A stretch of DNA of 64,000 bases from assembly GCF_026625885.1 (NCBI RefSeq), contig NZ_CP113068.1:3720001-3784000 (forward strand). The letters run 5' to 3'. The position numbers were made by a program, and so were the translations under genes. The notes beneath the pieces are model-generated. The model did no database searches. It saw nothing but the letters and a program-made list of their open reading frames with translations, and was not told the origin of the DNA. The DNA is from Roseateles sp. SL47 (GTDB taxonomy: Bacteria > Pseudomonadota > Gammaproteobacteria > Burkholderiales > Burkholderiaceae_C). This document shows positions 23,399 through 41,300 of this stretch, piece by piece (position 1 is the first letter of the stretch; every line of letters begins with the position of its first letter).

Positions 23399-23424
23399 AC
23401 TCCGCAGCGCCTGAGCCGCTGAGC

Positions 23425-23520
23425 CACTGAACGCCCGAGCCACTGAACGCCCGAGCCACTGAGCGCCCGAGCCACTGAGCGCCCGGGCCACTGAGCGCCC
23501 AAGCCACAGAGCGCCCGAGC
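23425..23520. repeat. 16-bp tandem repeat, six copies
   Basis: The unit CACTGARCGCCCGAGC is repeated six times head to tail with one or two substitutions per copy, and a partial unit precedes the array. It starts 27 bp after the MFS stop codon. Each unit resembles half of a GC-rich hairpin. It is too short and gapless to be a CRISPR. Confidence 0.9.
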
Positions 23521-23724: not shown

Positions 23725-24273
23725 GAACTTCTCCTTGGACATCCTCTGCAGCGGGTTTGCTGCGTTGGCATGGTTCAAAGCGTGCGCCTGCACGGAGTGG
23801 TGCGCTTTGCCTTGAATCAAGGTCAGAGGCGCATGGCTCGTGTTCTCGGCTCAGGCCTGCGATTGGTCAACACCTAGAACGGCAGTGGACAAAGTGCGCC
23901 CTTTGCCGTGCGCCACCTCACAACTGTCCGCACAAACCTCGATTTTGTTTTTTATGTATCGCTGCTTGGTGAGTGGTGCTTGCCAATTTCACTTTATTCA
24001 ATGTGGCGGTGGCCGTCATATTGATTGCAGGTAACGGATCTTCTTATTTATCAAGGACCGTACCTTCTTTAGTTTTTGGGCAGTCGTTATCCTGACGCTG
24101 TCGCGAAATCAGAAGGCGATCGAAATTCGGGTTCATCAAGGCAAAAAATATTGCTGAGCCGGCTCCCCAACCGGTTTGTTTCGAGTCGCCCGCTTCGCGT
24201 TCCTATTGGTGTTTTTGACTCCTGGTCTCCCTCGTGGGATCAGGCCTGGCCCCGCCGTGGCCGTTTGCCGGAA
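23725..24273. other. Upstream region of the cycloserine-like cluster
   Basis: This stretch of about 550 bp is AT-richer than its surroundings (for example the T-rich run near 23940-23960 and 24035-24075) and probably carries the promoter of the cluster. No convincing gene, RNA or repeat was seen. The 9-bp operator-like half-site found in the exporter/regulator gap was not seen here. Confidence 0.5.
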
Positions 24274-25050
24274 ATGTCATCAATGAACGGGTTTTTTCAA
24301 CCGCTTGTCAGTCAGGTGGAAATATCCAGAGCGTCCCCGGACTGGTGCTTTGAGATACTGTGTGAGTTGGAGTCAAGGCTTGCTGGAGATTCCGGATTTC
24401 CCTGCGTTTTCTCAAAGAATGCCTTCAAGAAGAAACTCATTAAATTCATCTTCGTTGAAGGGGTCGATGCCGCAGGTATTCGCCATCTGGCCGAGGGCTT
24501 GAAGCAATATGTGGAACTGTCCCGCCAATGGGATGGAGCCTTGGACACTGCTTATCCACTGATCGTCGCGTTTTCACGTGACGTCATTCAGGCCGATGCC
24601 GTGGCGGCCTATCACGCCTTTGGCTGGCGCGTGCTGCAGGCGCTGCACGAGGTGGACCCCGCACCATGGCCACAGGGTGTTGGCCAGGACCCGAATGCGG
24701 CGGACTGGTCCATGTGCTTCAACGGCATGCCCCTGTTCTGCAACATGAGCAACCCGGCGCACCTGGCGCGCAAGAGTCGCCATCTGGGCCGCCATTTCAT
24801 GCTGGTCATCAACCCGCGGGACCGCTTCGATGTCTTCGCGGGCAACACCCCCGGTGGCCGGAAGGTCCGCGCCAACATCCGCCAGCGCATCGAACGCTAC
24901 GACGGCCAGCCGCATGCACCGCAGCTCGGCTTCTTCGGTGCCGAGAGCCGTGAGTGGTGGCAATACGGGCTGTTGGATGACAACAGCGCCCGCCAGGACC
25001 AGTGCCCCTTCCTGTTCCGTTCTTCCACAAGGACCTCTCGCCATGATTGA
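24274..25050 (+). CDS. dcsA: DcsA/GntA-like heme-dependent guanidino N-hydroxylase (YqcI/YcgG family)
   Basis: This protein of about 258 aa has the YqcI/YcgG family pattern. FPCVFSKNAFKKKLIKFIFVEG lies in the N-terminal third, and CFNGMPLFCNMSNPAHLARKSRHLGRHFMLVINPRDRFDVFAG toward the C-terminal half. Members include DcsA of D-cycloserine synthesis, which hydroxylates the guanidino nitrogen of L-arginine, and GntA of guanitoxin synthesis; both are heme-dependent. Immediate overlap (eight bases) with a DcsB-like gene and the downstream dcsD/E/G homologues argue for the arginine N-hydroxylase role. The start could be 24274 or 24283; an in-frame extension further upstream looks non-coding. The symbol follows from context plus family and is inferred. 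Confidence 0.82.
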   Translation: MSSMNGFFQPLVSQVEISRASPDWCFEILCELESRLAGDSGFPCVFSKNAFKKKLIKFIFVEGVDAAGIRHLAEGLKQYVELSRQWDGALDTAYPLIVAFSRDVIQADAVAAYHAFGWRVLQALHEVDPAPWPQGVGQDPNAADWSMCFNGMPLFCNMSNPAHLARKSRHLGRHFMLVINPRDRFDVFAGNTPGGRKVRANIRQRIERYDGQPHAPQLGFFGAESREWWQYGLLDDNSARQDQCPFLFRSSTRTSRHD

Positions 25051-25861
25051 ACTCATCGTTTCTCAAGGCCGTGTGGCCGACCGCGCCCCGCGCATGATCG
25101 AAGGTGCCGCACGCACCGCCCAGGCGCTGAGCCAGCGCTACGGCATGGCAACGCGCACGGTTGGCTGCCCCCAGCCCGCTGCACAGGACGACTGGCGCGA
25201 AAGCCTGCCGCAGGCTCGTGAGACGCTGAAAGGCCTGCAGGCCGCCGTGCAGGCGAGCGTCCGTCAAGGGCCGTTGACGGTGATGCTTTCCAACACCTGC
25301 TCGGCCAGCCTGGCCAGCCTGCCGGTGGTGGCCCGTGAGCATCCGGACGCCGTGGTGCTCTGGATCGACGCACACGGGGATTTCAACACCCCGGACACCA
25401 CCGATTCCGGCTATTTGGGCGGCATGGTGCTGGCGGGGGCCTGCGGGCTGTGGGACAGCGGCCATGGTGCCGGTCTGCAGCCGCGCCAGGTGGTGCTGGT
25501 CGGGGCGCGCGATATCGACGATCAGGAGCGGGCCCTGCTGGCAGATGCCGGGGTGCGCATCCTGCCCCCCGCCGCCGTCACGCCCGAAGCTGTGCTGGCG
25601 GCCATCGGCGATGCACCGGTGTGGGTGCACATCGACTGGGATGTCTTGGATCCCGGCCATCTACCCGCCGACTACTCGGTCCCCAACGGTTTGCATCCCC
25701 ACCAGATTCGCGCCTTGTTCGAGGCGATTCCGGCCGCGCAACTGCGTGGCATGGAACTGGCCGAGTTCAATGCTTCGCTCGATGAAGCGGTGAATGCCTC
25801 CGCGCTGGCGGTGATCCTGGACATCGTCGCGCCGGTGTTTCAGCGGCTCGGCGCTGCCTGA
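25043..25861 (+). CDS. dcsB: DcsB-like N-omega-hydroxy-L-arginine amidinohydrolase (arginase superfamily)
   Basis: This 272-residue ureohydrolase-fold protein would release hydroxyurea and ornithine from N-hydroxyarginine. Metal ligands are Asp109, His111 and Asp113 (IDAHGDF) and Asp198 and Asp200 (HIDWDVLDP). The segment equivalent to the arginase GGDHS motif reads SNTCS, placing Cys86 where canonical arginases have a histidine ligand. As far as I recall this substitution is characteristic of DcsB and leaves a mononuclear Mn site. The ATG overlaps the end of dcsA by eight bases, with AAGGA nine bases upstream. Confidence 0.9.
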   Translation: MIELIVSQGRVADRAPRMIEGAARTAQALSQRYGMATRTVGCPQPAAQDDWRESLPQARETLKGLQAAVQASVRQGPLTVMLSNTCSASLASLPVVAREHPDAVVLWIDAHGDFNTPDTTDSGYLGGMVLAGACGLWDSGHGAGLQPRQVVLVGARDIDDQERALLADAGVRILPPAAVTPEAVLAAIGDAPVWVHIDWDVLDPGHLPADYSVPNGLHPHQIRALFEAIPAAQLRGMELAEFNASLDEAVNASALAVILDIVAPVFQRLGAA

Positions 25862-26035
25862 GCGCGTTGAGGGGCAGGTCGCAAGCAGAGCCGCAGCGGC
25901 CCCGCCGCCCAGCCTCCGCTGACCTGCCACCGACCCGCGACCGACCCGCATCCACCCCACACCCAAACGGACCCACGCATCCCCTCAATCCCTCCCCCCT
26001 CAGACCAATCTCCAACCACCCTCAAGGACACCCTC

Positions 26036-27043
26036 ATGGCTCTCTACAACAGCATCCTCGACACCATCGGCCGTACCCCCATCGTCAAACTGCACCGGGT
26101 CGCGCCACCGCATGTCAGCCTGTATGTGAAGGTTGAATCGTTCAATCCAGGCGGCTCGGTGAAGGACCGCCTCGCCCTGGCGGTGGTGCTGGACGCCGAA
26201 TCCAAGGGTCTTCTCAAGCCTGGTGACACCCTCTGCGAGTGCACCTCCGGCAATGTTGGCATTGCACTGGCCATGGTGGCGGCGGCGCGAGGTTATCGAT
26301 TCGTGGCGGTGATGTCCGATTCCTACTCCCTCGAGCGGCGCAAATTGATCCGGGCGTATGGCGGCAAGGTGCTGCTGTTCCCGGCGGCGCTGGGCAGCAG
26401 TGGTGGCAACCGCATTGCCGATGAACTGGCCGACCGCCACGGCTGGTTCCGTGCCCGCCAGTTCGACAACCCTGCCAACCCGGCCTATCACCGCGAGACC
26501 ACGGCTGCCGAGATCCTCAGCGACTTTGCGGGCAAGCGCCTGGACTACTTCGTCACCGGCTTCGGCACCACCGGCACCCTGACCGGGGTGGGCCAGATGC
26601 TGAAGCTGGCGCGGCCGCGCGTGCGTGTGGTGGCGGCAGAACCGGCCAATGCGGCGGTGTTGGCCGGGCAGGCGTGGAATGTCCATCAGATCCAGGGTTG
26701 GGCCCCCAACTTCGTGCCCAGTGTGCTGGACCCGAGCGTGATTGATGAACTGCGGCCCATTGACGAGCGGGTGGGGCGTGACACCTCACGCCGCCTGGCC
26801 GCCGAGGAGGGGATTTTTGTCGGCATCTCTGCCGGGGCCACAGTGGCCACGGCCCTGGACGTGGCGCGAGGCGCGCCTGAAGGCTCCGTGCTGCTGGCCA
26901 TGCTGCCCGACACCGGCGAGCGATATCTCTCCACCTTTTTGCTGGAGGGCATGAATGAGGGATCGGACGACGAGTGGCTGAGCGCCCTCGGCGGTCCGTC
27001 CGTCGCCACCTTGGTGGAAGCCGCCGCGCCGCAAACCGTCTGA
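26036..27043 (+). CDS. dcsD: DcsD-like O-ureido-L-serine synthase (cysteine synthase family)
   Basis: This 335-residue PLP fold-type II enzyme is of the OASS family. The Schiff-base lysine lies in NPGGSVKDRLA and the substrate-binding loop reads CTSGNVGIALAMV, where CysK has TSGNTG. Other signatures are the MSDSYSLERRKLIRAYGGKVLLFP segment, GFGTTGTLTGVGQML and GISAGATVATAL. In the D-cycloserine pathway this enzyme joins hydroxyurea to O-acetyl-L-serine. It can be confused with a housekeeping cysK, but it lies between the hydroxyurea-forming dcsB and the serine acetyltransferase dcsE. AAGGA lies seven bases before the ATG. The 174-bp gap before it is C-rich and holds nothing evident. Confidence 0.9.
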   Translation: MALYNSILDTIGRTPIVKLHRVAPPHVSLYVKVESFNPGGSVKDRLALAVVLDAESKGLLKPGDTLCECTSGNVGIALAMVAAARGYRFVAVMSDSYSLERRKLIRAYGGKVLLFPAALGSSGGNRIADELADRHGWFRARQFDNPANPAYHRETTAAEILSDFAGKRLDYFVTGFGTTGTLTGVGQMLKLARPRVRVVAAEPANAAVLAGQAWNVHQIQGWAPNFVPSVLDPSVIDELRPIDERVGRDTSRRLAAEEGIFVGISAGATVATALDVARGAPEGSVLLAMLPDTGERYLSTFLLEGMNEGSDDEWLSALGGPSVATLVEAAAPQTV

Positions 27044-27070
27044 GTGGCCGGCCCGCGCAGCACCCGGCTT

Positions 27071-27090
27071 CTCATCTCATCTCATCTCAT
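27071..27090. repeat. Pentanucleotide repeat (CTCAT)4 upstream of dcsE
   Basis: Four perfect CTCAT units lie in the 69-bp gap between dcsD and dcsE, about 20 bp upstream of the AGGAG of dcsE. A length change by slippage would alter spacing, not frame. Confidence 0.8.
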
Positions 27091-27112
27091 CCCATCCCTC
27101 CAGGAGTTGCCC

Positions 27113-28639
<1,527 letters not shown>

Positions 28640-28649
28640 GGTGCCCACC

Positions 28650-29396
28650 ATGACCCCAACCGTTCCCACCCTGGCGCTCGTCACCGGCGCCAATCGCGGC
28701 ATCGGCCTGGAAATCGCCCGGCAACTGGCCGAGCAGGGCGTGCGCGTCCTGCTCACCGGTCGTCGTGCTGGCGCGGCTGCAGAAGCGGCCCGCCAGCTCA
28801 GCGCAGAAGGCCTGGATGTGGAAGCCCTGGTGCTGGATGTCACCCACCCGGCCAGCATCGCGGCAGCCGCGCAAGGCGTGCAGCAGCGTTATGGCCGCCT
28901 CGACATCCTCGTCAACAACGCCGCCATCCGCATCGAACCTTACGGCCGGTGCCCGTCGCAGCAGCCGCTGGACCAATGGCGCGAAACCTTCGACACCAAC
29001 CTCTTTGGCGTCGTGGCGGTCACCCAGGCCTTCCTGCCGCTGTTGAAGGCCTCTCCGGCGGCCCGCATCGTGAATGTGTCCAGCCTGCTGGCTTCGCTGG
29101 GCACGCACAGCGACCCGGCCTCTTATGCCTACAGCGACATGTTCAAGTCGCTGCCGGCCTACAGCGCCTCCAAGAGCGCCATCAACTCATGGACGGTCCA
29201 CCTGGCCTACGAGCTGCGGGACACCGGTATCAAGGTCAATGCCGTGCACCCGGGCTACACCAGGACGGACATGAACGATGGTGCCGGTGAGCAGGAGCCC
29301 CGGCAGGGTGCGCTCACCAGTGTGCGCATGGCCCTGCTGGGGCCCGACGGCCCCACCGGCCAGTACGTGCACCTGGGGCGCCAGATTCCGTGGTGA
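28650..29396 (+). CDS. SDR family NAD(P)-dependent oxidoreductase
   Basis: This 248-residue classical short-chain dehydrogenase has the cofactor motif TGANRGIGLEIARQL, NNAAIR, a catalytic Ser in IVNVSSLLAS, YSASKSAINSWTVHLAYEL and the PGYTRTDM segment. It resembles carbonyl-reductase-like SDRs. It starts 10 bp after dcsE with GAGG at acceptable spacing and precedes dcsG, so it is in the operon. It has no counterpart among the reactions known for D-cycloserine formation, and its substrate is unknown. Confidence 0.9.
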   Translation: MTPTVPTLALVTGANRGIGLEIARQLAEQGVRVLLTGRRAGAAAEAARQLSAEGLDVEALVLDVTHPASIAAAAQGVQQRYGRLDILVNNAAIRIEPYGRCPSQQPLDQWRETFDTNLFGVVAVTQAFLPLLKASPAARIVNVSSLLASLGTHSDPASYAYSDMFKSLPAYSASKSAINSWTVHLAYELRDTGIKVNAVHPGYTRTDMNDGAGEQEPRQGALTSVRMALLGPDGPTGQYVHLGRQIPW

Positions 29397-29498
29397 CGCT
29401 CCGGCGGCCAGGGCGCTGACGCCCACGCCAACCCCGTCGAGCCACGCGCTTCGCCCGTCGTGGCACCGAGGGCCTGCCATTCCAATTCAGATCGATTC

Positions 29499-30413
29499 AT
29501 GATGAAAACTCTCGCTTTGGTCACCAGTGCCGGCAGCCTGCCGATTGATGTCGACATGCCGCTGCTGCTGCAGGCTTGCCGCAGCCTCGGCCTGCACGCC
29601 GAGGTGTGCGATTGGGAAGACCCCGATGTGCCGTGGGGCCGCTTCGATGCGGCGGTTTTGCGATCGCCGTGGAACTATGTGGATGCCTTGCCCGCCTTCA
29701 TGGCCTGGTGCGATCGCGTCGCGCCGGTCACGCGGCTGTTCAATCCGCCTCAGGTGGCACGCTGGTCGCTGGACAAGCGCTACCTCTCCGATCTGGCGCG
29801 CCTGGGTGTGCCGGTGGTGCCCTCGTGTTTTGTCGCGCCGCAGGACAACGTGGATGCGGTGTTGCACGGCTTCCTGCACGACTTCCTGAAGTCCCAGCCG
29901 CAAGCGGCCGAGATCGTGGTCAAGCCCACGGTCGGCGCCTACTCGCGGGACGTGCAGCGATTCCACCGCGACCGCCTCGACCTGGCCGCCGGCTACATCC
30001 GCACGCTCCACGCGCGGTGCCATCAGGTCATCCTGCAGCCCTACCTCTCGTCCATCGATCGTGATGGCGAAACCAATCTCGCCTTCTTTGACGGTCAGTA
30101 CAGCCACGCCATCCGCAAGAGCGCCATGCTGATGGCCGATGGCACGGTGCATGTGCCCACCCAGGACCTGCGCCAGGCCCGCGACGCCGATGCCGACGAG
30201 CAGGCGGTGGCCGGTGCAGCCTTGCGCGCCGCCGCGCTGCATCTTGGGCTGCGGGAACCGCTGCTGTATGCCCGTGTGGATCTGGTCCGCAACGACGAGG
30301 GCCAGCCGATGGTGCTGGAGCTGGAGATCTGTGAGCCCTCGCTGAACCTGCCGTTTGCCGAGGGCAGCGCCCTGCGCTTTGCCCAGGCCATGGCACGCCG
30401 TGTGGGCCATTGA
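29499..30413 (+). CDS. dcsG: DcsG-like cycloserine synthetase (ATP-grasp)
   Basis: This protein of about 304 aa is an ATP-grasp-type ligase. Its N-terminus (LALVTSAGSLPIDVDMPLLLQACRSLGL), the segment DWEDPDVPWGRFDAAVLRSPWNY, VVKPTVGAYSRDV, the FFDGQYSHAIRKSA loop and the metal-site region VDLVRNDEGQPMVLELEICEPSLNL all fit the O-ureidoserine cyclase DcsG. DcsG closes the isoxazolidinone ring with ATP. It is the last gene of the dcs operon and converges with the MFS exporter. Two consecutive ATGs (29499, 29502) are possible starts, and neither has a strong ribosome site. Confidence 0.88.
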   Translation: MMKTLALVTSAGSLPIDVDMPLLLQACRSLGLHAEVCDWEDPDVPWGRFDAAVLRSPWNYVDALPAFMAWCDRVAPVTRLFNPPQVARWSLDKRYLSDLARLGVPVVPSCFVAPQDNVDAVLHGFLHDFLKSQPQAAEIVVKPTVGAYSRDVQRFHRDRLDLAAGYIRTLHARCHQVILQPYLSSIDRDGETNLAFFDGQYSHAIRKSAMLMADGTVHVPTQDLRQARDADADEQAVAGAALRAAALHLGLREPLLYARVDLVRNDEGQPMVLELEICEPSLNLPFAEGSALRFAQAMARRVGH

Positions 30414-30487
30414 CGTTGTGCTCACGGTTCGCTCCCGCTTGAGGCTCGGCTGAATGACGGCCGACTTGCCGCGGACCGGTTTCGGCC

Positions 30488-31687
30488 TCACTGCTTGCCG
30501 AAGGCTTCCGCCGGTCGCGTTGGCAGTTCGCTGATGGCGAGCTCCGGCGAGCGGCGGCCCAGCAGGGCCAGGGTGCCGGCTGTCAGCACCAGGCCGAACG
30601 CGAGCAGCGCGGTGGCTGTCCCATACCGGTCCGCCACCAGCCCGGTGAAGATCACCGGCACGCTGAAGCCGACATAGGCCATCAGGAAGTAGGCCGCGCT
30701 GGCGCGTGTTTTCTCCGCGCCGGCGGCTTCGGCGGTGCCTGCCAGCCCACCCAGATACACAAAGCCATAACAGGCACTGCTGGCCGCCAAGGCGCCCAGC
30801 AGCACCGCCACCAGCATGCCCGACCATGCGCCCCAGGCCAGCAGCGCATACGCCGGCACCAGCACCAGCAATCCGATGCGGACGGCCTGTCGAGGTGGCT
30901 GCCGGCGTGCGGTGGGCTGGAACAGCAGCCCGCAGCTGATGGCCAGCATCGTTGCCAGCCCGGAATACCGCGAGAGCCCGTGCGGGGCCAGCACCGACGG
31001 CAGGATGGAGATGACCAGGCCGGTGGTGGCCCAGCACAGCAGGATGGCCGCGCCAAACCACAGGCCGTCCGAAGTGAAGTAGGGCAGGCGCAGCATCGGC
31101 GCCTTCGGCCCCTGCCGTGGCGCCGTCTCGGGCAACTGCCACACCAGCACAGCGGACGCGGCCACCCCCGCCAGATGCAACCAGAAGCTGGGGGGTGCCA
31201 CCGTCTCCCGCATCATCAGGCAGAGGCTGGTCAGCACCGGGCCCAGCCCGAAACCGATGGACGTGCTGGCTGTCACCCAATTGGCGGCGCGGGACGCACG
31301 TGCATGGCCAAACAGCTCCAGCATGTAGGCGGTGGCGGTGGCGGACATCAATGCCGTGCCCGTCCCCAGGATGAATCGCGCCAGGGCCAGGGTGGTGACA
31401 TGGGGAAACGCCATCATCAACAGCGTGCCCAGCGCCGAGAACACCAGCGCCAGCAGCATCACCCGTCGCCGGCCGATACGGTCCGACAGCCCGCCCAGCC
31501 CCAGCAGCACCGGCAGCACTCCCGCCACATAGAACGAAAAGGCAATGGTGGTGGCCATCACGCCCACACCGTCCGCTTGTGCATAGGTGGCGTACAGAGG
31601 CGCCTGGAGGTTGACGCCGGTGGTCATCACGCACAGCGCCACGGCCAGCCAGGCCGGATGTCGTGTGCTGGGTTGTTGGGGTCCCAT
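30488..31687 (-). CDS. MFS efflux transporter of the dcs locus
   Basis: This 399-residue protein has about twelve helices. The MFS loop signature is LGGLSDRIGRRRVMLL between helices 2 and 3, and TGLVADRYGTATALLAFG lies in the last third. It resembles drug-efflux-type MFS proteins. It is convergent with dcsG and divergent from the MocR regulator, with a perfect inverted repeat in the gap. Product export and self-resistance is the likely role, which is inference. Confidence 0.88.
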   Translation of the reverse strand: MGPQQPSTRHPAWLAVALCVMTTGVNLQAPLYATYAQADGVGVMATTIAFSFYVAGVLPVLLGLGGLSDRIGRRRVMLLALVFSALGTLLMMAFPHVTTLALARFILGTGTALMSATATAYMLELFGHARASRAANWVTASTSIGFGLGPVLTSLCLMMRETVAPPSFWLHLAGVAASAVLVWQLPETAPRQGPKAPMLRLPYFTSDGLWFGAAILLCWATTGLVISILPSVLAPHGLSRYSGLATMLAISCGLLFQPTARRQPPRQAVRIGLLVLVPAYALLAWGAWSGMLVAVLLGALAASSACYGFVYLGGLAGTAEAAGAEKTRASAAYFLMAYVGFSVPVIFTGLVADRYGTATALLAFGLVLTAGTLALLGRRSPELAISELPTRPAEAFGKQ

Positions 31688-31781
31688 ACCTGCAAAAGCT
31701 CCCTCGTTGGCCTTGTTTCTGGAGGTGCGCCCCTAGACCGGTGGGTCCTGGGGCCTGCCTGCATTGCAGGATAGCCAGGAC

Positions 31782-31833
31782 ATGGGTACAAACACAGGCA
31801 CAGTTCGACCATTCCGGAACCATCTGTACCCAT
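31782..31833. promoter_or_regulatory. Inverted-repeat operator candidate for the MocR regulator
   Basis: ATGGGTACA (31782-31790) and TGTACCCAT (31825-31833) form a perfect 9-bp inverted repeat with a 34-bp spacer, giving centre-to-centre spacing of about four DNA turns. It sits in the 182-bp divergent gap between the MFS and MocR genes, where autoregulatory MocR sites usually lie. Confidence 0.65.
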
Positions 31834-31869
31834 CCGTTTTAGAAACAGTTTCCACCGCTGAGCCCGACC

Positions 31870-33261
31870 ATGAATCTCCAGATCCAACGTGACTCCGACA
31901 CCCCGCTGGCCGACCAGGTGGAGCAGGGCCTGCAGGCCCATATCGGTCGGCGTGTCTACGCGCCCGGAGCCCGGCTGCCCTCCATTCGCAGCCTGGCCAG
32001 TGACCTGGGGGTGAGCCGTAATACAGTGATCGAGGCCTATGACCGGCTGGTCACGCGCGGCCTGGCCCGGTCGCAACCGGGCTCGGGTTATTACGTGGAA
32101 GACGGCGCCGTCCGCTTCCCGTCGGCCGGCATGGCCAACCCGCGGGATGCGGAGAGCGTTACTGATGAGCTCTGGCATCTTTTCCGGGAGCAGAACGACA
32201 GCGTGAAGCTGGGCTGTGGCTGGTTGCCGGACAGCTGGCGCGAGAGCGAAGACATGGCCTATGCCATCCGCCAGACCGTCCGGCGGGACCGCAGCGGGCT
32301 GTTTGACTACGGCACGCCGCTGGGCAGCCCCAGCCTGCGCAAGGCCCTGAGCCGGCGCCTGTATGCCATGGACATCGAAGCCCCGGCCAATCAGTTCCTG
32401 CTGACCAGCGGCGCCAGCCAGGCGCTGGACCTGCTGGTGCGCCTGCTGCTGCGGCCCGGCGACACGGTGCTGGTGGAGACGCCGGGCTACTACAACCTGT
32501 TCGGGCTGCTCAAGCTGCAGGGCATCCAGATGGTTGGTGTGCCGCGCACCGCCAACGGGCCGGATGTGGAAGCCTTGGAGCGGCTGCTGGAGACCCACAA
32601 GCCCAAACTGTTCTTTGTCAACGGCGTCTTCCACAACCCGACCGGCAGCACCATCTCGGTGGCCACGGCCCACCGCATCCTGCAACTGGCGGAGCGGCAC
32701 GATTTCAATGTGGTGGAAGACGACATCTATGCCGACTTCCAAAGCAGCGCCACACCTCGCCTGGCGGCGCTGGACCAATTGAACCGGGTGATCTACATCG
32801 GCAGCTTCTCCAAAAGCTTGTCGTGCTCGCTGCGGGTGGGCTTTGTGGCGGCGGCGCCGTCGCTGATCAAACGGCTGGTCGACTTGAAGATGCTGACCAG
32901 CATCACCTCGTCCCGCTTTGCAGAGGAGGTGCTGGCCGTGATGCTGGAGAACGGCAGCTATCGCAAGCTGGTGGAGCGGCTGCGGCGCCGCCTGGACCGT
33001 CAATTGGCCGTGGCCAGCCGATTGCTCACCACCGCCGGATGGCAGTTGTTCTGTCGCCCGACCGGCGGCATGTTCTTGTGGGCACGTTGGCCGGGCGTGG
33101 ACGACGCGAATGAACTGGTCAAACGCGCGGCCGCGCGAGGCGTGAGTTTTTCCGCAGGGTCTGTCTTCACCCCGGATCTGGCCATGTGCCCCTGGCTGCG
33201 CATCAACGTCAGTTATGTGGACGACCCGCGCGCCATGGCCTTCCTGAACAAGCCGATGTGA
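31870..33261 (+). CDS. MocR/PdxR-type GntR transcription regulator with aminotransferase-like PLP domain
   Basis: This 463-residue protein has a GntR winged helix (residues about 8-75, PLADQVEQGLQAHIGRRVYAPGARLPSIRSLASDLGVSRNTVIEAYDRLVTRGL). A fold-type I aminotransferase-like domain follows. PLP contacts are visible in TSGASQALDLLVRLLLRPGDTVLVETPGYYN, NPTGS, VEDDIYADF and the lysine in GSFSKSLS. MocR proteins bind PLP and sense its adducts. It is divergent from the MFS exporter, so it likely controls that gene and perhaps the dcs operon. A sensing role for cycloserine, a PLP-reactive antibiotic, is an inference. Confidence 0.92.
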   Translation: MNLQIQRDSDTPLADQVEQGLQAHIGRRVYAPGARLPSIRSLASDLGVSRNTVIEAYDRLVTRGLARSQPGSGYYVEDGAVRFPSAGMANPRDAESVTDELWHLFREQNDSVKLGCGWLPDSWRESEDMAYAIRQTVRRDRSGLFDYGTPLGSPSLRKALSRRLYAMDIEAPANQFLLTSGASQALDLLVRLLLRPGDTVLVETPGYYNLFGLLKLQGIQMVGVPRTANGPDVEALERLLETHKPKLFFVNGVFHNPTGSTISVATAHRILQLAERHDFNVVEDDIYADFQSSATPRLAALDQLNRVIYIGSFSKSLSCSLRVGFVAAAPSLIKRLVDLKMLTSITSSRFAEEVLAVMLENGSYRKLVERLRRRLDRQLAVASRLLTTAGWQLFCRPTGGMFLWARWPGVDDANELVKRAAARGVSFSAGSVFTPDLAMCPWLRINVSYVDDPRAMAFLNKPM

Positions 33262-33554: not shown

Positions 33555-35363
33555 ATGAAGCGGCGATATTCGCACCAGCTCGGGGAGGGCCTGGCGGGTG
33601 CAGGCAATTCCAATTTCTTTGTGACCTCTGCGTCGCGGGCTGCCCTGGCCTTGGGGCTGGGCACGGTGGCGGGGCTGGCCTGGGGCCAGGCCTTGCCTGC
33701 GGCCGGCGCGGTGGACCCGGACGCTCAGCGGCAGTTGCAACAGCAGCGGGAATCGCAGCAGCGGCAGTCGCTGGAACGCGAGCCGGACGTGCGCCTGCAG
33801 GCCAGCGCGCCGCCTAGCCGGCAGCGCCTGCGTGAGGACGAATCGCCCTGCTTCGTCATTCAGCAGATCGAGCTCAGGGGCGTCGAGAAGCTGCCGACCA
33901 TTGCACGCATGGTGCGCACCCTGGATGGCCCAGCCGGGGACGATTCACCGATCGGCCGCTGCCTGGGGGCGCAGAGCATTGGCACGCTGGTCACCCGGCT
34001 GCAGGACGCGGTGATCGAAGCAGGCTACATCACCACCCGGGTGCTGGCGGCGCCGCAGGACCTCTCCACCGGCCGCCTGGTGCTGACGGTGGTCCCCGGC
34101 CGGGTTCACCGCATCCGCTTGCGCGAAGGCAGTTCACGGCAGGTGAGGCTGGCCAATGCGCTGCCCATTCGCGAGGGCGACGTGCTGAACCTGCGGGACA
34201 TGGAGCAGGCGCTGGAGAACCTTCAGCGCGTGCCGGGCGCCCAGGCGGACATCCAGGTGCAACCGGCGCAGGACAACAGCGAGCCGGGCTGGAGTGACCT
34301 GGCCGTCAGCTATCAGGGGGGGCGGCAATGGCGCTGGCAATGGTCACTGGACGACAGCGGCAATGAATCCACCGGCCGTTATCCGCTGTCACTCACGGCT
34401 TCACTCGACCACCCGCTCACCCTCAATGACCTGTTCTATGTGACGGTCAGCCGCGATACGAGTGAACTCAATCGGCGCCTGCATGACAAACCCGGTCCAC
34501 TTCCTGGAACCGGAGGCCATGTGGTGCATTACTCGCTGCCGTGGGGGCACACGCTCATCAGCAGCACTTTCAGCCGCAATGGCTATCAGCAGGTGGTGAT
34601 TGGCGCCAACCAGCGGTATGTGTATCGCGGCACCAGCAGCAATGGCGAGGTCAAGCTGACGCGCATGCTATGGCGGGATGCGCAATACAAATTCAGCGGC
34701 TTTGCCAAGGTCCTTGGGCGCTCCTCGCGCAATTACATCGACGACACCGAGGTGGAAGTGCAGCGCCGCCGCGTGGGTGGTTGGGAAGCGGGGGTGACGC
34801 TCAAGCGGCAGGCGGGCGCCGTGTCCAGTGATGCCGAGTTGAGCCTGAAGCGAGGCACGGGGGCCTTCCATGCACTGGAAGCTCCGGAAGACGCTTTTGG
34901 AGAAGGCAGTTCGCGCATGAGCCTGCTGCAGGGCAGCTTCAGCGTGGCTGGCGCGGTGCCGCTGGGGCAGCGCAAGTTGCAACTGAGCACGCAATGGCGT
35001 GGGCAATACGCACTGCGCCCCTTGACACCGCAAGACCGCTTTGCGATCGGGGGCCGCTACACGGTGCGTGGATTTGGCCCAGATGCTTCGCTGTCGGCTG
35101 ACAACGGGTTGCTGACCCGCAATGAAGCCGAATTGCCGCTGACGGGCATGGCTTCGCTCTACCTCGGCCTGGATGCCGGCGTGGTGTCCGGCCCCAGCGC
35201 GGGCCGACTGGCTGGCAAGCGCCTGATGGGTGCCGTCATCGGCACCCGTGTGCGGGCCGAAGGCCTGTCTCTGGATCTCTTTGCTGGCACGCCTGTGCAG
35301 CAACCCTCCAATTTCCCTGTCGCCCGTTTCACGGCCGGCTTCTCTTTGAGCTATTCGCGATGA
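33555..35363 (+). CDS. cdiB: Two-partner secretion outer-membrane transporter (ShlB/FhaC/CdiB family)
   Basis: This 602-residue TpsB protein exports the following CdiA across the outer membrane. It has a signal peptide (AALALGLGTVAGLAWGQA, about 28-45) and a Gln/Arg-rich linker helix region. A POTRA_2 domain follows (CFVIQQIELRGVEKLP... and VTRLQDAVIEAGYITTRVLAAPQDLSTGRLVLTVVPG), then ShlB-type POTRA (IRLREGSS..LPIREGDVLNLRDMEQALENLQRV) and a C-terminal barrel. The barrel carries the hallmark GGRYTVRGF of loop L6 and ends in an aromatic-Ser-Arg. Its stop overlaps the cdiA start as ATGA. A GEMM riboswitch precedes it. Confidence 0.95.
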   Translation: MKRRYSHQLGEGLAGAGNSNFFVTSASRAALALGLGTVAGLAWGQALPAAGAVDPDAQRQLQQQRESQQRQSLEREPDVRLQASAPPSRQRLREDESPCFVIQQIELRGVEKLPTIARMVRTLDGPAGDDSPIGRCLGAQSIGTLVTRLQDAVIEAGYITTRVLAAPQDLSTGRLVLTVVPGRVHRIRLREGSSRQVRLANALPIREGDVLNLRDMEQALENLQRVPGAQADIQVQPAQDNSEPGWSDLAVSYQGGRQWRWQWSLDDSGNESTGRYPLSLTASLDHPLTLNDLFYVTVSRDTSELNRRLHDKPGPLPGTGGHVVHYSLPWGHTLISSTFSRNGYQQVVIGANQRYVYRGTSSNGEVKLTRMLWRDAQYKFSGFAKVLGRSSRNYIDDTEVEVQRRRVGGWEAGVTLKRQAGAVSSDAELSLKRGTGAFHALEAPEDAFGEGSSRMSLLQGSFSVAGAVPLGQRKLQLSTQWRGQYALRPLTPQDRFAIGGRYTVRGFGPDASLSADNGLLTRNEAELPLTGMASLYLGLDAGVVSGPSAGRLAGKRLMGAVIGTRVRAEGLSLDLFAGTPVQQPSNFPVARFTAGFSLSYSR

Positions 35364-38300
35364 ACCGACTTCAGTACCGGATTGTTTTCAACAAGCAGCG
35401 GGGCCAACTGATGGCCGTGGCGGAGACAGTGCGCAGCCAGAGCAAGGCGGCGGGGCAGACCGGCCATCCATCCCTGCGCGCAGTGAAGTCCGCAGACGGG
35501 GTGGAACCCACCGCTTGCGGCCCGCCCAGCCTCATCGCCATCGCGGCGGCGTTCGCCGTGGGCGCGGTGCTGACGCTGCTCCCGGTGCCGCCCGCCCAGG
35601 CGCAGGTCAAGGCGGATCCCAACGCACCCAAGAATCAACAGCCAACGGTGCTGACGGCACCCAACGGCACGCCCTTGGTCAACATCCAGACGCCGAGTTC
35701 GTCGGGCGTCTCCCGCAACACCTACAGCCAGTTCGATGTGAACGGCCAGGGCGTCATCCTGAACAACTCCCGCACGGACACCAGCACGCAACTGGGCGGC
35801 TGGGTGCAGGGCAATCCGTGGATGGCCAAGGGGGAAGCGCGGGTCATTCTGAACGAGGTCAACAGCAGCGCGCCCAGTCAGCTCAAGGGCTATGTGGAGG
35901 TGGCGGGGCGCCGGGCGGAGGTGATCATTGCCAATCCGGCCGGCATCCAGGTGGATGGCGGGGGCTTCATCAATGCAAGCAGCGCCACGCTGACCACGGG
36001 CACCCCTCGTTTCGATGCCGCCGGCCATGTGACCGGCTTTGGTGTGCAGGGGGGATTGATCCGCATCGACGGCGCCGGGCTGGATGGCAGCCAGACCGAC
36101 TACACGGCGCTGCTGGCCCGCGCGGTGGAACTCAATGCCGGGTTCTGGGCCAAGGAGGCGCGTATTCAGACCGGCACAGAAGTGATGCCGGTGGTGTCAG
36201 CGGGTGGCGCGGACGCCGGGCAGGGCGCTGGTGAGGCACTGGCCCCGACGGGCGAGCGGCCGCGTTATGCACTGGACAGCACCGCGCTGGGCGGCATCTA
36301 TGCGCAGCGGATCACCTTGGTGGGCACCGAGGCCGGGCTGGGGGTGCGCCAGGCCGGGCAGATGGTGGGCGGTCAGTTGAAGCTGGATGTCAACGGGTGG
36401 CTGGACAATAGCGGCACCCTGTATGCACAGGACGGCGGGGCTGATGCGCTCCATGTGAATGCGACTTCCGGCGTCCACAACAGCGGCACGATGGCAGCGC
36501 GGGGCTCGACGACGGTGAGCGGCGCCCAACTTCAGGGTGAGGCCGAGAGCCTGACGGCGGCCGGACTGAACGAGGACGGCACGCTGGTCGTTGGTAGCGG
36601 CACCTTGAGCCTGCGGGCGGGGGACAGCCTGAGGCAATCCGGTCAGATGCTGGCGGGGGACCGCGTAGAGGTCCAGGCCAAGGCTGTTGATGTGTCGGGC
36701 GCTTCGGTGCAGGGGCGCCAAGTATCCCTGCAAGGGGACGTGCTGCGCGCGGACGGCGCGCAACTGGCTTCCACCGGCGCCATGCAGTTGCAGGCGACGG
36801 GTGGCTTGTTTGCCACACAGGCAGCCCTCCAGGCTGGCGACTTGACCGTCAGCGCCGCAACCCTTCAGCTAGAAAAGAGCGAGCTGTCTTCCGCTGGCAC
36901 TCTGACGCTCACCACCAGCGGGCTGTTGAACACCCGTGGCGCCTTGGTGGCCGGGGATCTTCTGCAGATCACCGCAGGTGAAGCGGACAACCAGGGCGGT
37001 GAATGGCTGCACCTGGGGGCACAGCGCTTCAACGCGACGGTTGCGGGCACACTGACCATGACGGGTGGACGCCTGGCGACCAATGCCCAGGACATGACCG
37101 TGAACGCCGGCCAGCTCACGGGTGCGCAGGCCAGCCTGGAGCACTACGGCACGGGTGTGTTCAGTGTCACGGCCGCGTCGGCGGACCTGGGAGGTGCACA
37201 GCTCACGTCTTACGGAACGCTGGATCTGCAAACCCAGTCGCTGCAACTGGATGCGGTGGATGCGTTGGTGCGGGCCGTCCACTTGCAGGCCGATACCGTG
37301 TCCCTTCGGCAGGCCCTGGTACGCAGCGCCAGCACGGCGAGTGTCACGGGCGCCGTCATCGACCATCGTGGTGGGCAACTGGTCGGTGACCAGGGTGTTT
37401 CCATCACCGCCTCAACATCGTTCCTCAACGATGGCGGGCAGATCCATGCCGCCAGCGGTTCGGTGGATATCACTGGTGATGCCGACATCAGCAATCGCGC
37501 AGGGGTACTGGCCGCGCAGGGCACGGTCAGTGTTGCCGGTGTCTCGCTGACCCAGGCGAATGGGGCCTCGATCAGCGGGAAGGATGTGAAGCTCCAGCTG
37601 CGAGGTTCCTTCAGTCAGGATGCAGTGGGTGCGGACACGGCCAGCTCCTCGGTGGCGGCCGCACGCGACCTGAACATCCAGGCTGACACCATGACGCAGG
37701 CGGGCGTAATGCGTGCAGGCAACGCCCTGGTACTGTCGGTGGCGCAGACAGCCGCGTTGGGCGGCTCCATCTACAGCCAGGGATCGCTCCAACTGCACGC
37801 TGGCGGTGCGGTGACCGTCAACGGGCTGCTGGGGGCGCAGGAAAGCGTCACGGCGACAGCCTCGCGCTTCACCACCAGCGCCACATCCACCGTGGCGGCG
37901 GGCCTTGGTACAGATGGGCAGATCAACACCTCGGGTGCCCTGAACATCAGTGCAGCGGACGAACTGCGCCTAGCGGGCCTGCAGTTGGCGGGGCATGCCC
38001 TCTTGCAGGGCGCGCGGCTGGATCTCACCAGCACGCAGCTCTCCACCGGCAGCTTGATGCTGCGCTCCGGCGGCGCGTTGATCACCGAGGGGGCCACGCT
38101 GCAGACTGGTCAACTGGGCGTGCAGGCCACGGATTGGCGCAACAGTGGCGGCAAGGTGGCCGTCAGCGGCACCGAGTCACTGCAGGTGACGTTGGTCGGA
38201 AACCTGAACAACCGCCAGGGCAGCCTGCAAACCAACAGCGCGCAAGCTTCGCTCACGGCCGCCAGCGTGGACAACACCGGCGGCGTGATCAGCACCAGCG

Positions 38301-41300
38301 GCGGTCTGTTGAGTCTGCAGGCCGACCACTGGCAGAACCAGTCCGGCGTGCTGGCTGGTGCCGGGGCGGTGACTGCACGGGTCGGAGAACTACTCAACGC
38401 GGACGGTCAATGGAGCGGCCAAATCCTGACGCTGGATGCCGACCGGCTGAGCAACGTCGGCAGTGGCCTGATCTCGGCGTCCCAGACGTTGCAGGTCGAC
38501 GCCGGGGAACTGCACAACAGTGGCACCTTGTATTCCCATGGCAACCTGGGCATCAGCAGCCGGGGTGTGCTGGAGAACAGCGGCCTGATTCGTGGTTTTG
38601 GCGTGTCCACGCTGCAGGCGGATCAACTTCTACAGGGCGGCACGGTAGCATCGCAGGGCAACCTGACGGCCACGGCGCGTGAGATCAGCAGCGCCGGCAC
38701 GTGGGCGGCGGGCCTGCAGGCCGACAACACCTGGGCGGCGACGGGTAATCTGACCCTGTCCGTACAGGACAGCCTGCAGCACAGTGGCACCGCGATCGCA
38801 GCGGGGCTCCTGCAGATGACCGGCGCGCAACTGCAACTGCAGGGCAGCCAGGCGCGGGCCCGCGAAGTTGCCTTGCTCTCCCAGGGGGACCTCCGACTGG
38901 ATCACGCCACGATGGCGGTGAATGGTGTGATGTCCCTGGGGGCACAGTCCACGCTGAATACGGAAGGTGCGAGCCTCAGTGCGGCGGATGTGACCCTGGC
39001 GGCGGCGGACTGGCGTCATGCCGGTGGAACCTTGTCGCAGACCGCCGCAGCAGGGCGATTGCAGGTGGATGTGGCCGGCCAGCTCGACAATACGGGCGGC
39101 AAGATCGAAGCCAATGCGGCCACCGTGGACCTGCGCGCCGCTACGCTGAACAATGCCCAAGGCAGCATCATGCATGCGGGTGCCGGTGGTCTCCGGCTGG
39201 CGGTGGGTACCCTCTACGGCGCCCGGGGTGAACTGCTCAGCAATGGCGCACTGACACTGACCGCCAACGGTGGCGTTGATGTCAGCAACGCTCGGGTCCA
39301 GGCACAGCAGGTGGTGCTGGCCGCGGATTCGCTTCAAAACCAGGCTGGACAAATCACCGGCGTGGTGGGTGTGCAGCTCACCGTGGCCCAGAGGCTGGAC
39401 AACACCAGTGGCCTGCTGCAAAGCGGTGGCGACCTGCGGCTGCAGGCGGGGACCCTCGAGAACCGGGATGGGCAGATCGACGGTGAGGCGGTTCACCTCT
39501 CCGGCAGCGACCTGAGCAACACGGGGCAGGGTTTGGTGAACGCACGCCAGGCGCTGCACATCGAGGCCGGTCAATTCACCAGCACGGGTTCGCTGCAAGC
39601 GGGAGACACGCTGTCCGTGAGCACCGAAGTGGCTTTTGTCCAGGGTGGGCTGCTCTATGCACAGCGGGCGGTGACGGTCCAGGCCGGTGGCCTGTTGACC
39701 CAAACCGGACTGCTGGCCTCCGCTGACGCCGTCACCCTCCATGCGCGGGACCTGGCGGGCAGCGGCCAGATCGTGGCCGGTCTCCGTAACGACAACACCT
39801 TGGGAACATCCGGTGATCTGACCGTGGTCGGGACGGGCGCTGTGCAGCACAGCGGGCAGTTCCTTGCGGCGGGGGCGCTGTCTGTCACGGGCGCTTCGTT
39901 GTCCTTGCAGGGGAGCCAGTCCCAGGCGCAGGCCGTGGCCATGCGGGCCAGCCAAGGGGATCTCCGTCTGGAGGGCGGTGCCGTCATCACCTCCGGGCTG
40001 CTGGACCTGCAAAGCAACAGCACCCTGGATTCCAGTGGTGCGGCGCTGAGCGCAGCGTCGGTGAATCTACAGGCGCAGGACTGGCGAAACATCGCCGGCC
40101 AGCTGGCGCAGACGGATGCGGCAGGCATCTTGAACGTCGCCGTGCAGGGTCTGATCCAGAACCAGGACGGCCGCATTGCCGGCAATGTGAGCGACCTGAC
40201 GCTACAGGCATCACAGATCAACAACACCCATGGCGCGGTGGTGCATGCGGGTGCGGGTGTGTTGACGCTGCGCGCCGATCAACTCGACGGCAGCCAGGGG
40301 CAGATTCTCTCGGCCGGAAGCATTGCGCTGTCGGTGACGGGCGCGGCGGACCTTTCGGCGGCGACGACGCAGGGCCAAGGCATCACGTTGGAGGCTACCA
40401 GCCTGAACCATCAAGGCGGCCAATGGCTCAGCGCGGGCGGCACACGCCTGGCGGTGACGGGCGCCATGGACAACACCCATGGGCAGATCCAGTCCGCCGC
40501 AGATGTGGTGATCCATGCGGGCAACGTGACCAACCAGGACGGCCAGTTGAGTGGACAGATGCTGGACCTCACCACCGGCACCCTGAACAACGGCGCCAAC
40601 GGCCTGGCACTGGCGCAGCGAGGTTTGACACTCACCGTCGACCGACTGACCAATGTCGGTTCCTTGCAGTCCCAGGGTACGCTGGCCTTGAACGTGACTG
40701 GCACCATGGGCAATGCCGGGCAGATCTACAGCCAGGCGGACGCCATCGTCTCCGTGGGCGGCGTGCTGACACATTCCGGCCTGTTGGCAGCACAAGGTTC
40801 GCTGACGGTATCCGCAGGGGCCATCAACAGCGCTGGCGTGCTGGCCGCAGGCTTGAAGCCGGACAGCACCCTGGCCGGCCAGGGGCATCTCAGCCTTCAG
40901 GCACAACAGACGCTGCAGCACAGTGGCGCCACCATCGCCGCAGGCCAGTTGGACGTGAGCGGCGCGGCCCTGCAGTTGCAGAACAGCCAGATTCAGGGGC
41001 AGTCCGTCCATCTGACGGCGGCATCGGGCGGGCTTCAGATGGATCACGCCATTGTGGCGTCCGGCGGCGACCTCACGCTGCACAGCCTGGCGGGCATGCT
41101 GGTGACGGATGATGCGACCCTGAGCGGCGCCTCCGTGAACCTGCGCGCGCAGGATTGGCGCAATTTGGGTGGCACGGTGGGGCAATTGAGCGCCAGCGGT
41201 CAACTGGTGGCCGAGGTCGCAGGTAGCCTGAATAACGAGCGTGGCGCCATTGAAGCCACGGGCGGCGCCCTGACGCTGACGGCTCAGTCGATCACCAACA

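What the first reader, a model, noticed from the sequence alone, without database searches (positions are those of the whole stretch)
24274..33261. Cycloserine-type antibiotic biosynthesis cluster in a betaproteobacterium
Seen: adjacent genes for a YqcI/YcgG-family protein, an arginase-fold protein, a cysteine synthase homologue, a MetX-like acyltransferase and an ATP-grasp enzyme, with an MFS exporter and a PLP-type regulator. Known: DcsA, DcsB, DcsD, DcsE and DcsG of Streptomyces lavendulae do arginine N-hydroxylation, hydroxyurea release, O-ureidoserine formation, serine acetylation and ring closure. Inference: the five homologues in one tight same-strand block make a cycloserine-like pathway the best reading. 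This would move a classical actinomycete antibiotic pathway into a Gram-negative lineage.
Basis: partly seen in the sequence, partly recalled or inferred. Interest (0 to 1): 0.93.

Follow-up and report, generated by a model that had tools for sequence, protein, structure and literature searches.

The report
Racemase-less cycloserine gene cluster in Roseateles
A Roseateles-type Gram-negative bacterium carries a compact gene block that matches five of the six enzymes of the Streptomyces D-cycloserine pathway but has no recognisable gene for the sixth, the racemase that makes the D form, so it would likely make the mirror-image drug L-cycloserine.

Summary
In detail: homologues of DcsA, DcsB, DcsD, DcsE and DcsG lie on one strand at 24274-30413, followed by an MFS exporter and a MocR-type regulator. 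Against the solved Streptomyces lavendulae enzymes DcsB is 67%, DcsD 80%, DcsE 63% and DcsG 59-60% identical, far above housekeeping relatives. (1) There is no DcsC, the O-ureidoserine racemase: the dcsB-dcsD gap is too short, the single-contig 6.39-Mb genome has only housekeeping dapF in that family, and the same block without dcsC occurs in all 5 of 16 genus genomes that carry it. (2) A short-chain dehydrogenase sits between dcsE and dcsG; contig matching suggests it travels with DcsG in actinomycetes too. (3) A two-part motif, GTACC-N(23 or 11)-TATCCTG, occurs in the window only before dcsA and between exporter and regulator, likewise in all five clusters. No second strong D-Ala-D-Ala ligase was found, and DcsG lacks the residues that set the S. 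lavendulae clade apart. Best reading: an O-ureidoserine-type cycloserine pathway, predicted to give L-cycloserine; D-cycloserine via an unlinked racemase is the main rival. Dcs-type genes in other Gram-negatives are already in databases: a new variant, not a first.

The parts
24060..24094 (+). two-part motif GTACC-N23-TATCCTG upstream of dcsA, predicted MocR operator
   Evidence: same spacing before dcsA in all five clusters; the pattern was drawn from these alignments
24274..25050 (+). dcsA homologue, YqcI/YcgG family, predicted heme-dependent arginine N-hydroxylase
   Evidence: PF08892 200 bits; AglA E 8e-25; GntA model 51 bits, below its cut-off of 145; no S. lavendulae DcsA sequence was available to compare
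25043..25861 (+). dcsB homologue, predicted N-omega-hydroxy-L-arginine amidinohydrolase (hydroxyurea release)
   Evidence: 6lug 390 bits; 179 of 269 identical, Cys86 kept
26036..27043 (+). dcsD homologue, predicted O-ureido-L-serine synthase
   Evidence: 3x43 570 bits; 256 of 319 identical; NCBIfam cysK model also passed
27113..28639 (+). dcsE homologue, predicted L-serine O-acetyltransferase, with a low-complexity insert and a His-rich tail in this strain
   Evidence: 3vvl 485 bits; 229 of 361 aligned residues identical; NCBIfam PRK00175 MetX model also passed
28650..29396 (+). short-chain dehydrogenase between dcsE and dcsG, role unknown
   Evidence: PF00106; same place in the other four clusters; on contigs of the same length as DcsG for 42 of 104
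29499..30413 (+). dcsG homologue, ATP-grasp cycloserine synthetase
   Evidence: NF058666 470 bits, cut-off 360; 6jil 380 bits; predicted model TM 0.94 to 6jil
30488..31687 (-). MFS transporter, predicted exporter
   Evidence: PF07690 99 bits; same place in the other four clusters
31767..31789 (-). two-part motif GTACC-N11-TATCCTG between the exporter and mocR, predicted MocR operator
31870..33261 (+). MocR-type regulator (GntR helix-turn-helix plus aminotransferase domain), SFSKS lysine K315 kept
   Evidence: PF00392 and PF00155; K315; 93-95% identical in the other four clusters

Best explanation
The block encodes homologues of five enzymes of the hydroxyurea/O-ureidoserine route to cycloserine but no recognisable O-ureidoserine racemase, and is therefore predicted to make L-cycloserine. 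Steps, all inferred from homology: DcsA hydroxylates the guanidine of L-arginine; DcsB cleaves N-hydroxyarginine to ornithine and hydroxyurea; DcsE acetylates L-serine; DcsD joins hydroxyurea to O-acetyl-L-serine, giving O-ureido-L-serine; DcsG activates the carboxylate with ATP and closes the ring. With no racemase the L centre would be kept. The MFS protein would export the product. The MocR protein, which keeps its PLP-type lysine, likely controls both promoters through the shared two-part motif and may sense cycloserine or PLP. The role of the dehydrogenase is open; it does not look like a stand-in for the racemase, since relatives in the S. lavendulae DcsG clade seem to have it too.
For: Dcs identity of B, D, E, G; DcsA by family only. 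No dcsC: the dcsB-dcsD gap is 174 bases here and 48-177 in the four sister clusters; one DAP-epimerase ORF in the genome and in each of 16 genus genomes, here a DapF by score; that DapF finds solved DcsC 7vdy at E 1.1e-53, so a DcsC should have been seen. One strong Ddl match per genome, so no counterpart of the S. lavendulae resistance ligase (recalled). In 4 of 5 carriers PF01168 finds only Alr and one 240-253-aa protein. DcsG has N82/V145/Y257 where six of seven S. lavendulae-clade proteins have T/D/C. Shared motif.
Against: Racemase families other than PF01678 and PF01168 were not searched, and G000 itself has two further weak PF01168 matches. The only DcsG with known chemistry is reported as D-specific (recalled; NCBIfam and the PDB name it D-cycloserine synthetase), and the window protein passes the model of that name. 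No product is known. The residue argument rests on sequence; whether other N/V/Y-type clusters lack dcsC is unknown, since I could not read their surroundings. Alanine racemase might turn over O-ureidoserine.
Confidence: 0.5

Rival explanations
1. The block makes D-cycloserine as in S. lavendulae, and an unlinked racemase (alanine racemase or one of another family) supplies O-ureido-D-serine.
For: Five of the six pathway enzymes are present, DcsG passes the D-cycloserine synthetase model, and G000 has two weak further PF01168 matches.
Against: No second PF01678 protein in any of 16 genus genomes; four of five carriers have just two PF01168 proteins; no second strong Ddl match; a pathway gene would be expected in a block otherwise conserved in order in five species.
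Confidence: 0.32
2. The block makes a different end product, with cycloserine or O-ureidoserine as intermediate, tailored by the dehydrogenase.
For: The dehydrogenase sits inside the operon in all five clusters and shares contig lengths with DcsG in 42 of 104 cases, though DcsABCDEG alone gave D-cycloserine in E. coli (PMC10214352, passage).
Against: It also appears on contigs of four S. lavendulae-clade DcsG proteins, next of kin to a D-cycloserine producer; no substrate for it is evident in the pathway.
Confidence: 0.12
3. A housekeeping set: cysteine synthase, homoserine acetyltransferase, arginase and an unrelated ATP-grasp enzyme that happen to be neighbours.
For: NCBIfam cysK (365 bits, cut-off 351) and PRK00175 MetX (409, cut-off 331) models are passed.
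Against: Solved-structure comparisons favour DcsB, DcsD, DcsE and DcsG by large margins; the order is conserved in five genomes.
Confidence: 0.01

Closest known systems
D-cycloserine (dcs) cluster of Streptomyces lavendulae ATCC 11924
   Same: Homologues of DcsA, B, D, E and G in that order; 67%, 80%, 63% and 59-60% identity for B, D, E, G
   Different: No dcsC racemase and no cluster-borne D-Ala-D-Ala ligase (dcsI, recalled); the exporter was not compared with DcsJ; MocR regulator and two-part motif; T/D/C positions of S. lavendulae DcsG are N/V/Y here
Dcs-type genes of Xenorhabdus, Pseudomonas huanghezhanensis and actinomycetes
   Same: DcsG homologues up to 66% identical among named non-Roseateles sources; many share contig lengths with DcsB or the dehydrogenase
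   Different: Their gene order and dcsC state could not be read here
AglA, GntA and ChmN guanidine N-oxygenases
   Same: YqcI/YcgG family like the DcsA homologue (PMC11177257, passages)
   Different: They serve other pathways (argolaphos, guanitoxin, chalkophomycin); the window protein scores 51 bits on the GntA model, cut-off 145

Membership tests
S. lavendulae-type D-cycloserine (dcs) pathway | DcsB-type hydroxyarginase with its active-site Cys | tested here: met
   390 bits against 82 for the best arginase; Cys86 kept; its role is recalled
S. lavendulae-type D-cycloserine (dcs) pathway | DcsD-type O-ureidoserine synthase rather than CysK | tested here: met
   570 against 289 bits, 256 of 319 identical; no tree built
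S. lavendulae-type D-cycloserine (dcs) pathway | DcsE-type serine acetyltransferase rather than MetX | tested here: met
   485 against 231 bits; 229 of 361 identical; no tree built. 3vvl is taken as DcsE because its REFIPP start is what the published dcsE primer encodes
S. lavendulae-type D-cycloserine (dcs) pathway | DcsG cyclo-ligase | tested here: met
S. lavendulae-type D-cycloserine (dcs) pathway | DcsA-type heme N-hydroxylase | tested here: inconclusive
   family match only; DcsA sequence not available
S. lavendulae-type D-cycloserine (dcs) pathway | DcsC O-ureidoserine racemase | tested here: not met
S. lavendulae-type D-cycloserine (dcs) pathway | Extra D-Ala-D-Ala ligase for self-resistance (DcsI, recalled) | tested here: not met
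   one strong PF07478 match per genome in 16 genomes; none in the block
S. lavendulae-type D-cycloserine (dcs) pathway | D-cycloserine as product | not testable with these tools
   needs chiral LC-MS
Housekeeping CysK and MetX | Nearest solved relatives are cysteine synthase and homoserine acetyltransferase rather than Dcs enzymes | tested here: not met
   the generic NCBIfam cysK and PRK00175 cut-offs are nevertheless passed

The most novel reading that the evidence does not exclude
The racemase-less dcs block is an L-cycloserine pathway, and this form is the older and commoner state of the DcsG family. S. lavendulae D-cycloserine synthesis is a later offshoot, made by adding a DapF-like racemase and a resistance ligase and by remodelling DcsG at positions that are N82, V145 and Y257 here and T, D and C there.
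Probability: 0.3. Interest if true: 0.82.

Novelty: new variant of a known kind. Interest (0 to 1): 0.62.

Why it matters
It gives a concrete genetic candidate for L-cycloserine, an irreversible inhibitor of serine palmitoyltransferase (PMC6148460, passage), and a clean way to ask how stereochemistry is set in this pathway: two DcsG types about 60% identical with a short list of differing residues. It also warns that an automatic 'D-cycloserine synthetase' label assumes a D product that clusters like this may not make, and it offers a testable MocR regulator that might sense a PLP-reactive drug.

Tried and rejected
Considered and rejected: (a) a housekeeping CysK/MetX set, by bit-score margins; (b) a hidden dcsC in the dcsB-dcsD gap, too short in the five clusters, or a second PF01678 protein elsewhere in the genome; (c) the dehydrogenase as substitute racemase, since contigs of four S. 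lavendulae-clade DcsG proteins seem to carry it too; (d) a duplicated Ddl as resistance gene, no second strong match, or a dedicated Alr; the carriers form one clade in quick Ddl and Alr trees (SH-aLRT 98 and 83; the Alr tree has 15 of 16 genomes). My first Ddl/Alr trees picked antisense frames and were discarded.

Led nowhere: getting the S. lavendulae DcsC sequence so as to map dcsC across clusters (solved DcsC 7vdy ranked too low to be printed); reading the neighbourhoods of Xenorhabdus, Pseudomonas or actinomycete clusters (the class, order and phylum draws gave no further cluster; the Lpp search had 0 of 369 genomes over its cut-off, so no enterobacterium to use as a centre). G1048, the only other genome over the DcsG cut-off in those draws, has no other gene of my query set near it; neither have G1146 and G425. 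Three plasmids with DcsB-like genes and one with a DcsA-like gene show no other annotated dcs-type gene close by. Paper searches gave nothing on this locus; of the 181 papers holding 'dcsg' only 20 were listed. The original dcs papers are not held. That L-cycloserine was once isolated from an Erwinia is recalled only. Two collections of the structure job came too early. No model coordinates were laid in the box.
Full report
What is there. The window lies in a single-contig genome of 6,388,479 bases (G000, window at 3720001-3784000). Its genus group includes the genomes held as Roseateles terrae and R. depolymerans (contig lengths and places agree). From 24274 to 30413 six genes run on the + strand: dcsA, dcsB (overlapping dcsA by 8 bases), dcsD, dcsE, a short-chain dehydrogenase and dcsG. 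A convergent MFS transporter and, divergent from it, a MocR regulator follow.

Identity of the enzymes. DcsB homologue: 390 bits to the solved N-omega-hydroxy-L-arginine amidinohydrolase against 82 for the best arginase; 179 of 269 residues identical, Cys86 kept. DcsD: 570 bits to O-ureido-L-serine synthase against 289 for the best cysteine synthase; 256 of 319 identical. DcsE: 485 bits to 3vvl against 231 for the best unrelated entry; 229 of 361 aligned residues identical. The PDB names 3vvl only a homoserine O-acetyltransferase; its REFIPP start is what the published S. lavendulae dcsE primer encodes (PMC10214352, passages). DcsG: 380 bits to 6jil, 470 bits on the NCBIfam DcsG model with cut-off 360, 59% identical to the S. 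lavendulae entry. Its AlphaFold model (mean pLDDT 93.7) matches the two 6jil chains at TM 0.94, and the other 48 chains listed at 0.72 or less by query length. DcsA is assigned by family only (PF08892, 200 bits; AglA E 8e-25). A result against: generic NCBIfam models call the DcsD and DcsE homologues CysK and MetX above their cut-offs, so automatic annotation may hide this cluster. I built no DcsD or DcsE tree.

What is missing. D-cycloserine is made by six enzymes, DcsABCDEG (PMC10214352, passages); one of them is the cofactor-free O-ureidoserine racemase DcsC (PMC8142540 and PMC8225329, passages). The dcsB-dcsD gap is 174 bases in the window and 48, 88, 134 and 177 in the four sister clusters. 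The genome has one DAP-epimerase ORF. It scores as DapF (282 bits, cut-off 114.65), and its neighbours look like a DUF484 protein and xerC (my reading of the translations). Each of the 16 genus genomes has exactly one such ORF. This DapF finds solved DcsC (7vdy) at E 1.1e-53, so a DcsC should have been detected. Four of the five carriers have two PF01168 proteins, Alr and one in a frame of 240-253 residues (probably YggS-like); G000 has two further weak matches. Each genome has one strong Ddl match, the rest being weak matches of other ATP-grasp proteins, so the resistance ligase that I recall from the S. lavendulae cluster has no evident counterpart. What is missing is thus what a D product would call for. 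Other racemase families were not searched.

Distribution. The DcsG model is met in 5 of 16 genus genomes and in 0 of the 44 other relatives. In the class draw 8 of 369 genomes have any match and only G000 passes the cut-off; in the order draw 36 of 399, only G000 passing; in the phylum draw 36 of 398, G000 and G1048 passing, and G1048 has no other gene of my query set near it. These draws overlap. The five carriers share one gene order and form one clade in quick Ddl and Alr trees, which fits one gain followed by vertical descent. The upstream MFS gene occurs in 13 of 16 genomes, 8 of them non-carriers. I fetched 20 kb around it in 6 of those 8 and found no other gene of the region's query set.

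The dehydrogenase. Five of the 42 are under 6 kb, so there the genes must be close neighbours. The set includes actinomycetes, Pseudomonas huanghezhanensis and four of the seven S. lavendulae-clade proteins. Equal length is an indirect sign of a shared contig. The gene lies where dcsF would lie if the order I recall for S. lavendulae is right. Its function is open.

DcsG residues. In a tree of 119 homologues (the 120 listed less one short row) the S. lavendulae protein sits in a clade of seven. Six of those seven have T, D and C at window positions 82, 145 and 257; the seventh, P0102, has S, N and Y. Of the other 112 rows all have Y257, all but P0051 (Q) have N82, and all have V, I or (P0092) T at 145. 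Position 257 begins the strand that carries invariant R259 and D261, and 145 lies in the loop after K142. That these line the substrate site is inferred from ATP-grasp anatomy; no coordinates were available.

Regulation. Aligning the promoters of the five clusters showed GTACC and TATCCTG conserved before dcsA and between exporter and mocR. GTACC-N(5-30)-TATCCTG occurs twice in the 64-kb window, at just these two places, against a mean of 0.01 in 100 shuffles. In the other four clusters it also occurs exactly twice, with the same spacings of 23 and 11; 133 of the 149 loci have no match, and the 16 with one are stretches of carrier clusters. The pattern was drawn from these alignments, so the test is not blind. 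The two spacings differ by 12 bases, about one helical turn. The MocR protein keeps a SFSKS lysine (K315) and is 93-95% identical between species, while DcsG is 74-77%. Control of both promoters by MocR, and sensing of cycloserine or PLP, are inferred.

Comparison with print. DcsG homologues with the names Xenorhabdus and Pseudomonas are in databases, and one paper lists a 'cycloserine' antiSMASH cluster in Xenorhabdus bovienii subsp. africana (PMC10371910, passages). My searches of the held library gave no paper on such genes in Roseateles, and none on this racemase-less form among the papers listed; the original dcs papers are not held.

Verdict. A real cycloserine-type gene set that lacks one defining enzyme of the D-cycloserine pathway; hence filed as a variant and not as a member, with L-cycloserine the predicted product at about even odds.

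Noticed in passing
window 33555-35363 and 35360-49789: Directly downstream lie what look like a two-partner secretion pair: an FhaC-type transporter ORF and a 4809-residue filamentous-haemagglutinin-like ORF with a Hint-like stretch near its C-terminus (my reading, no family scan run).
   Followed up: no
window 27860-27971 and 28337-28639: The DcsE homologue of this strain has an internal Ala/Ser/Pro-Thr low-complexity insert and a Glu-His/Gly-His/Pro-His repeat tail encoded by 6-base tandem repeats; the four sister proteins lack the insert and have other tails.
   Followed up: partly
window 23411-23520: A 16-base tandem array (GAGCCACTGAGCGCCC, 6.2 copies) starts just after the upstream MFS gene.
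   Followed up: no
L125 8729-10039 (G1048): A protein over the NCBIfam DcsG cut-off (377 bits, cut-off 360) with no other dcs-type gene near it, so the model may label proteins outside cycloserine clusters.
   Followed up: partly
L127 7987-8820; L128 9995-10837; L129 9986-10810: DcsB-like proteins, 55-61% identical to the window's, sit alone on plasmids of Pseudorhizobium and Rhizobium without annotated dcsD/E/G-type neighbours; they may serve N-hydroxyarginine handling or resistance.
   Followed up: partly
searches lists (P0201, P0210, P0270, P0276): Close relatives of the dehydrogenase or of DcsB carry the names Pseudomonas poae, Burkholderia lata, Burkholderia ubonensis and Verminephrobacter eiseniae, with no DcsG contig of equal length in the top-120 list: possibly related clusters with a more distant DcsG or none.
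   Followed up: no
L130 9857-10645: A DcsA-like YqcI/YcgG gene (45% identical over 82% of the query) beside a LysE-type translocator on a Thioclava plasmid.
   Followed up: no
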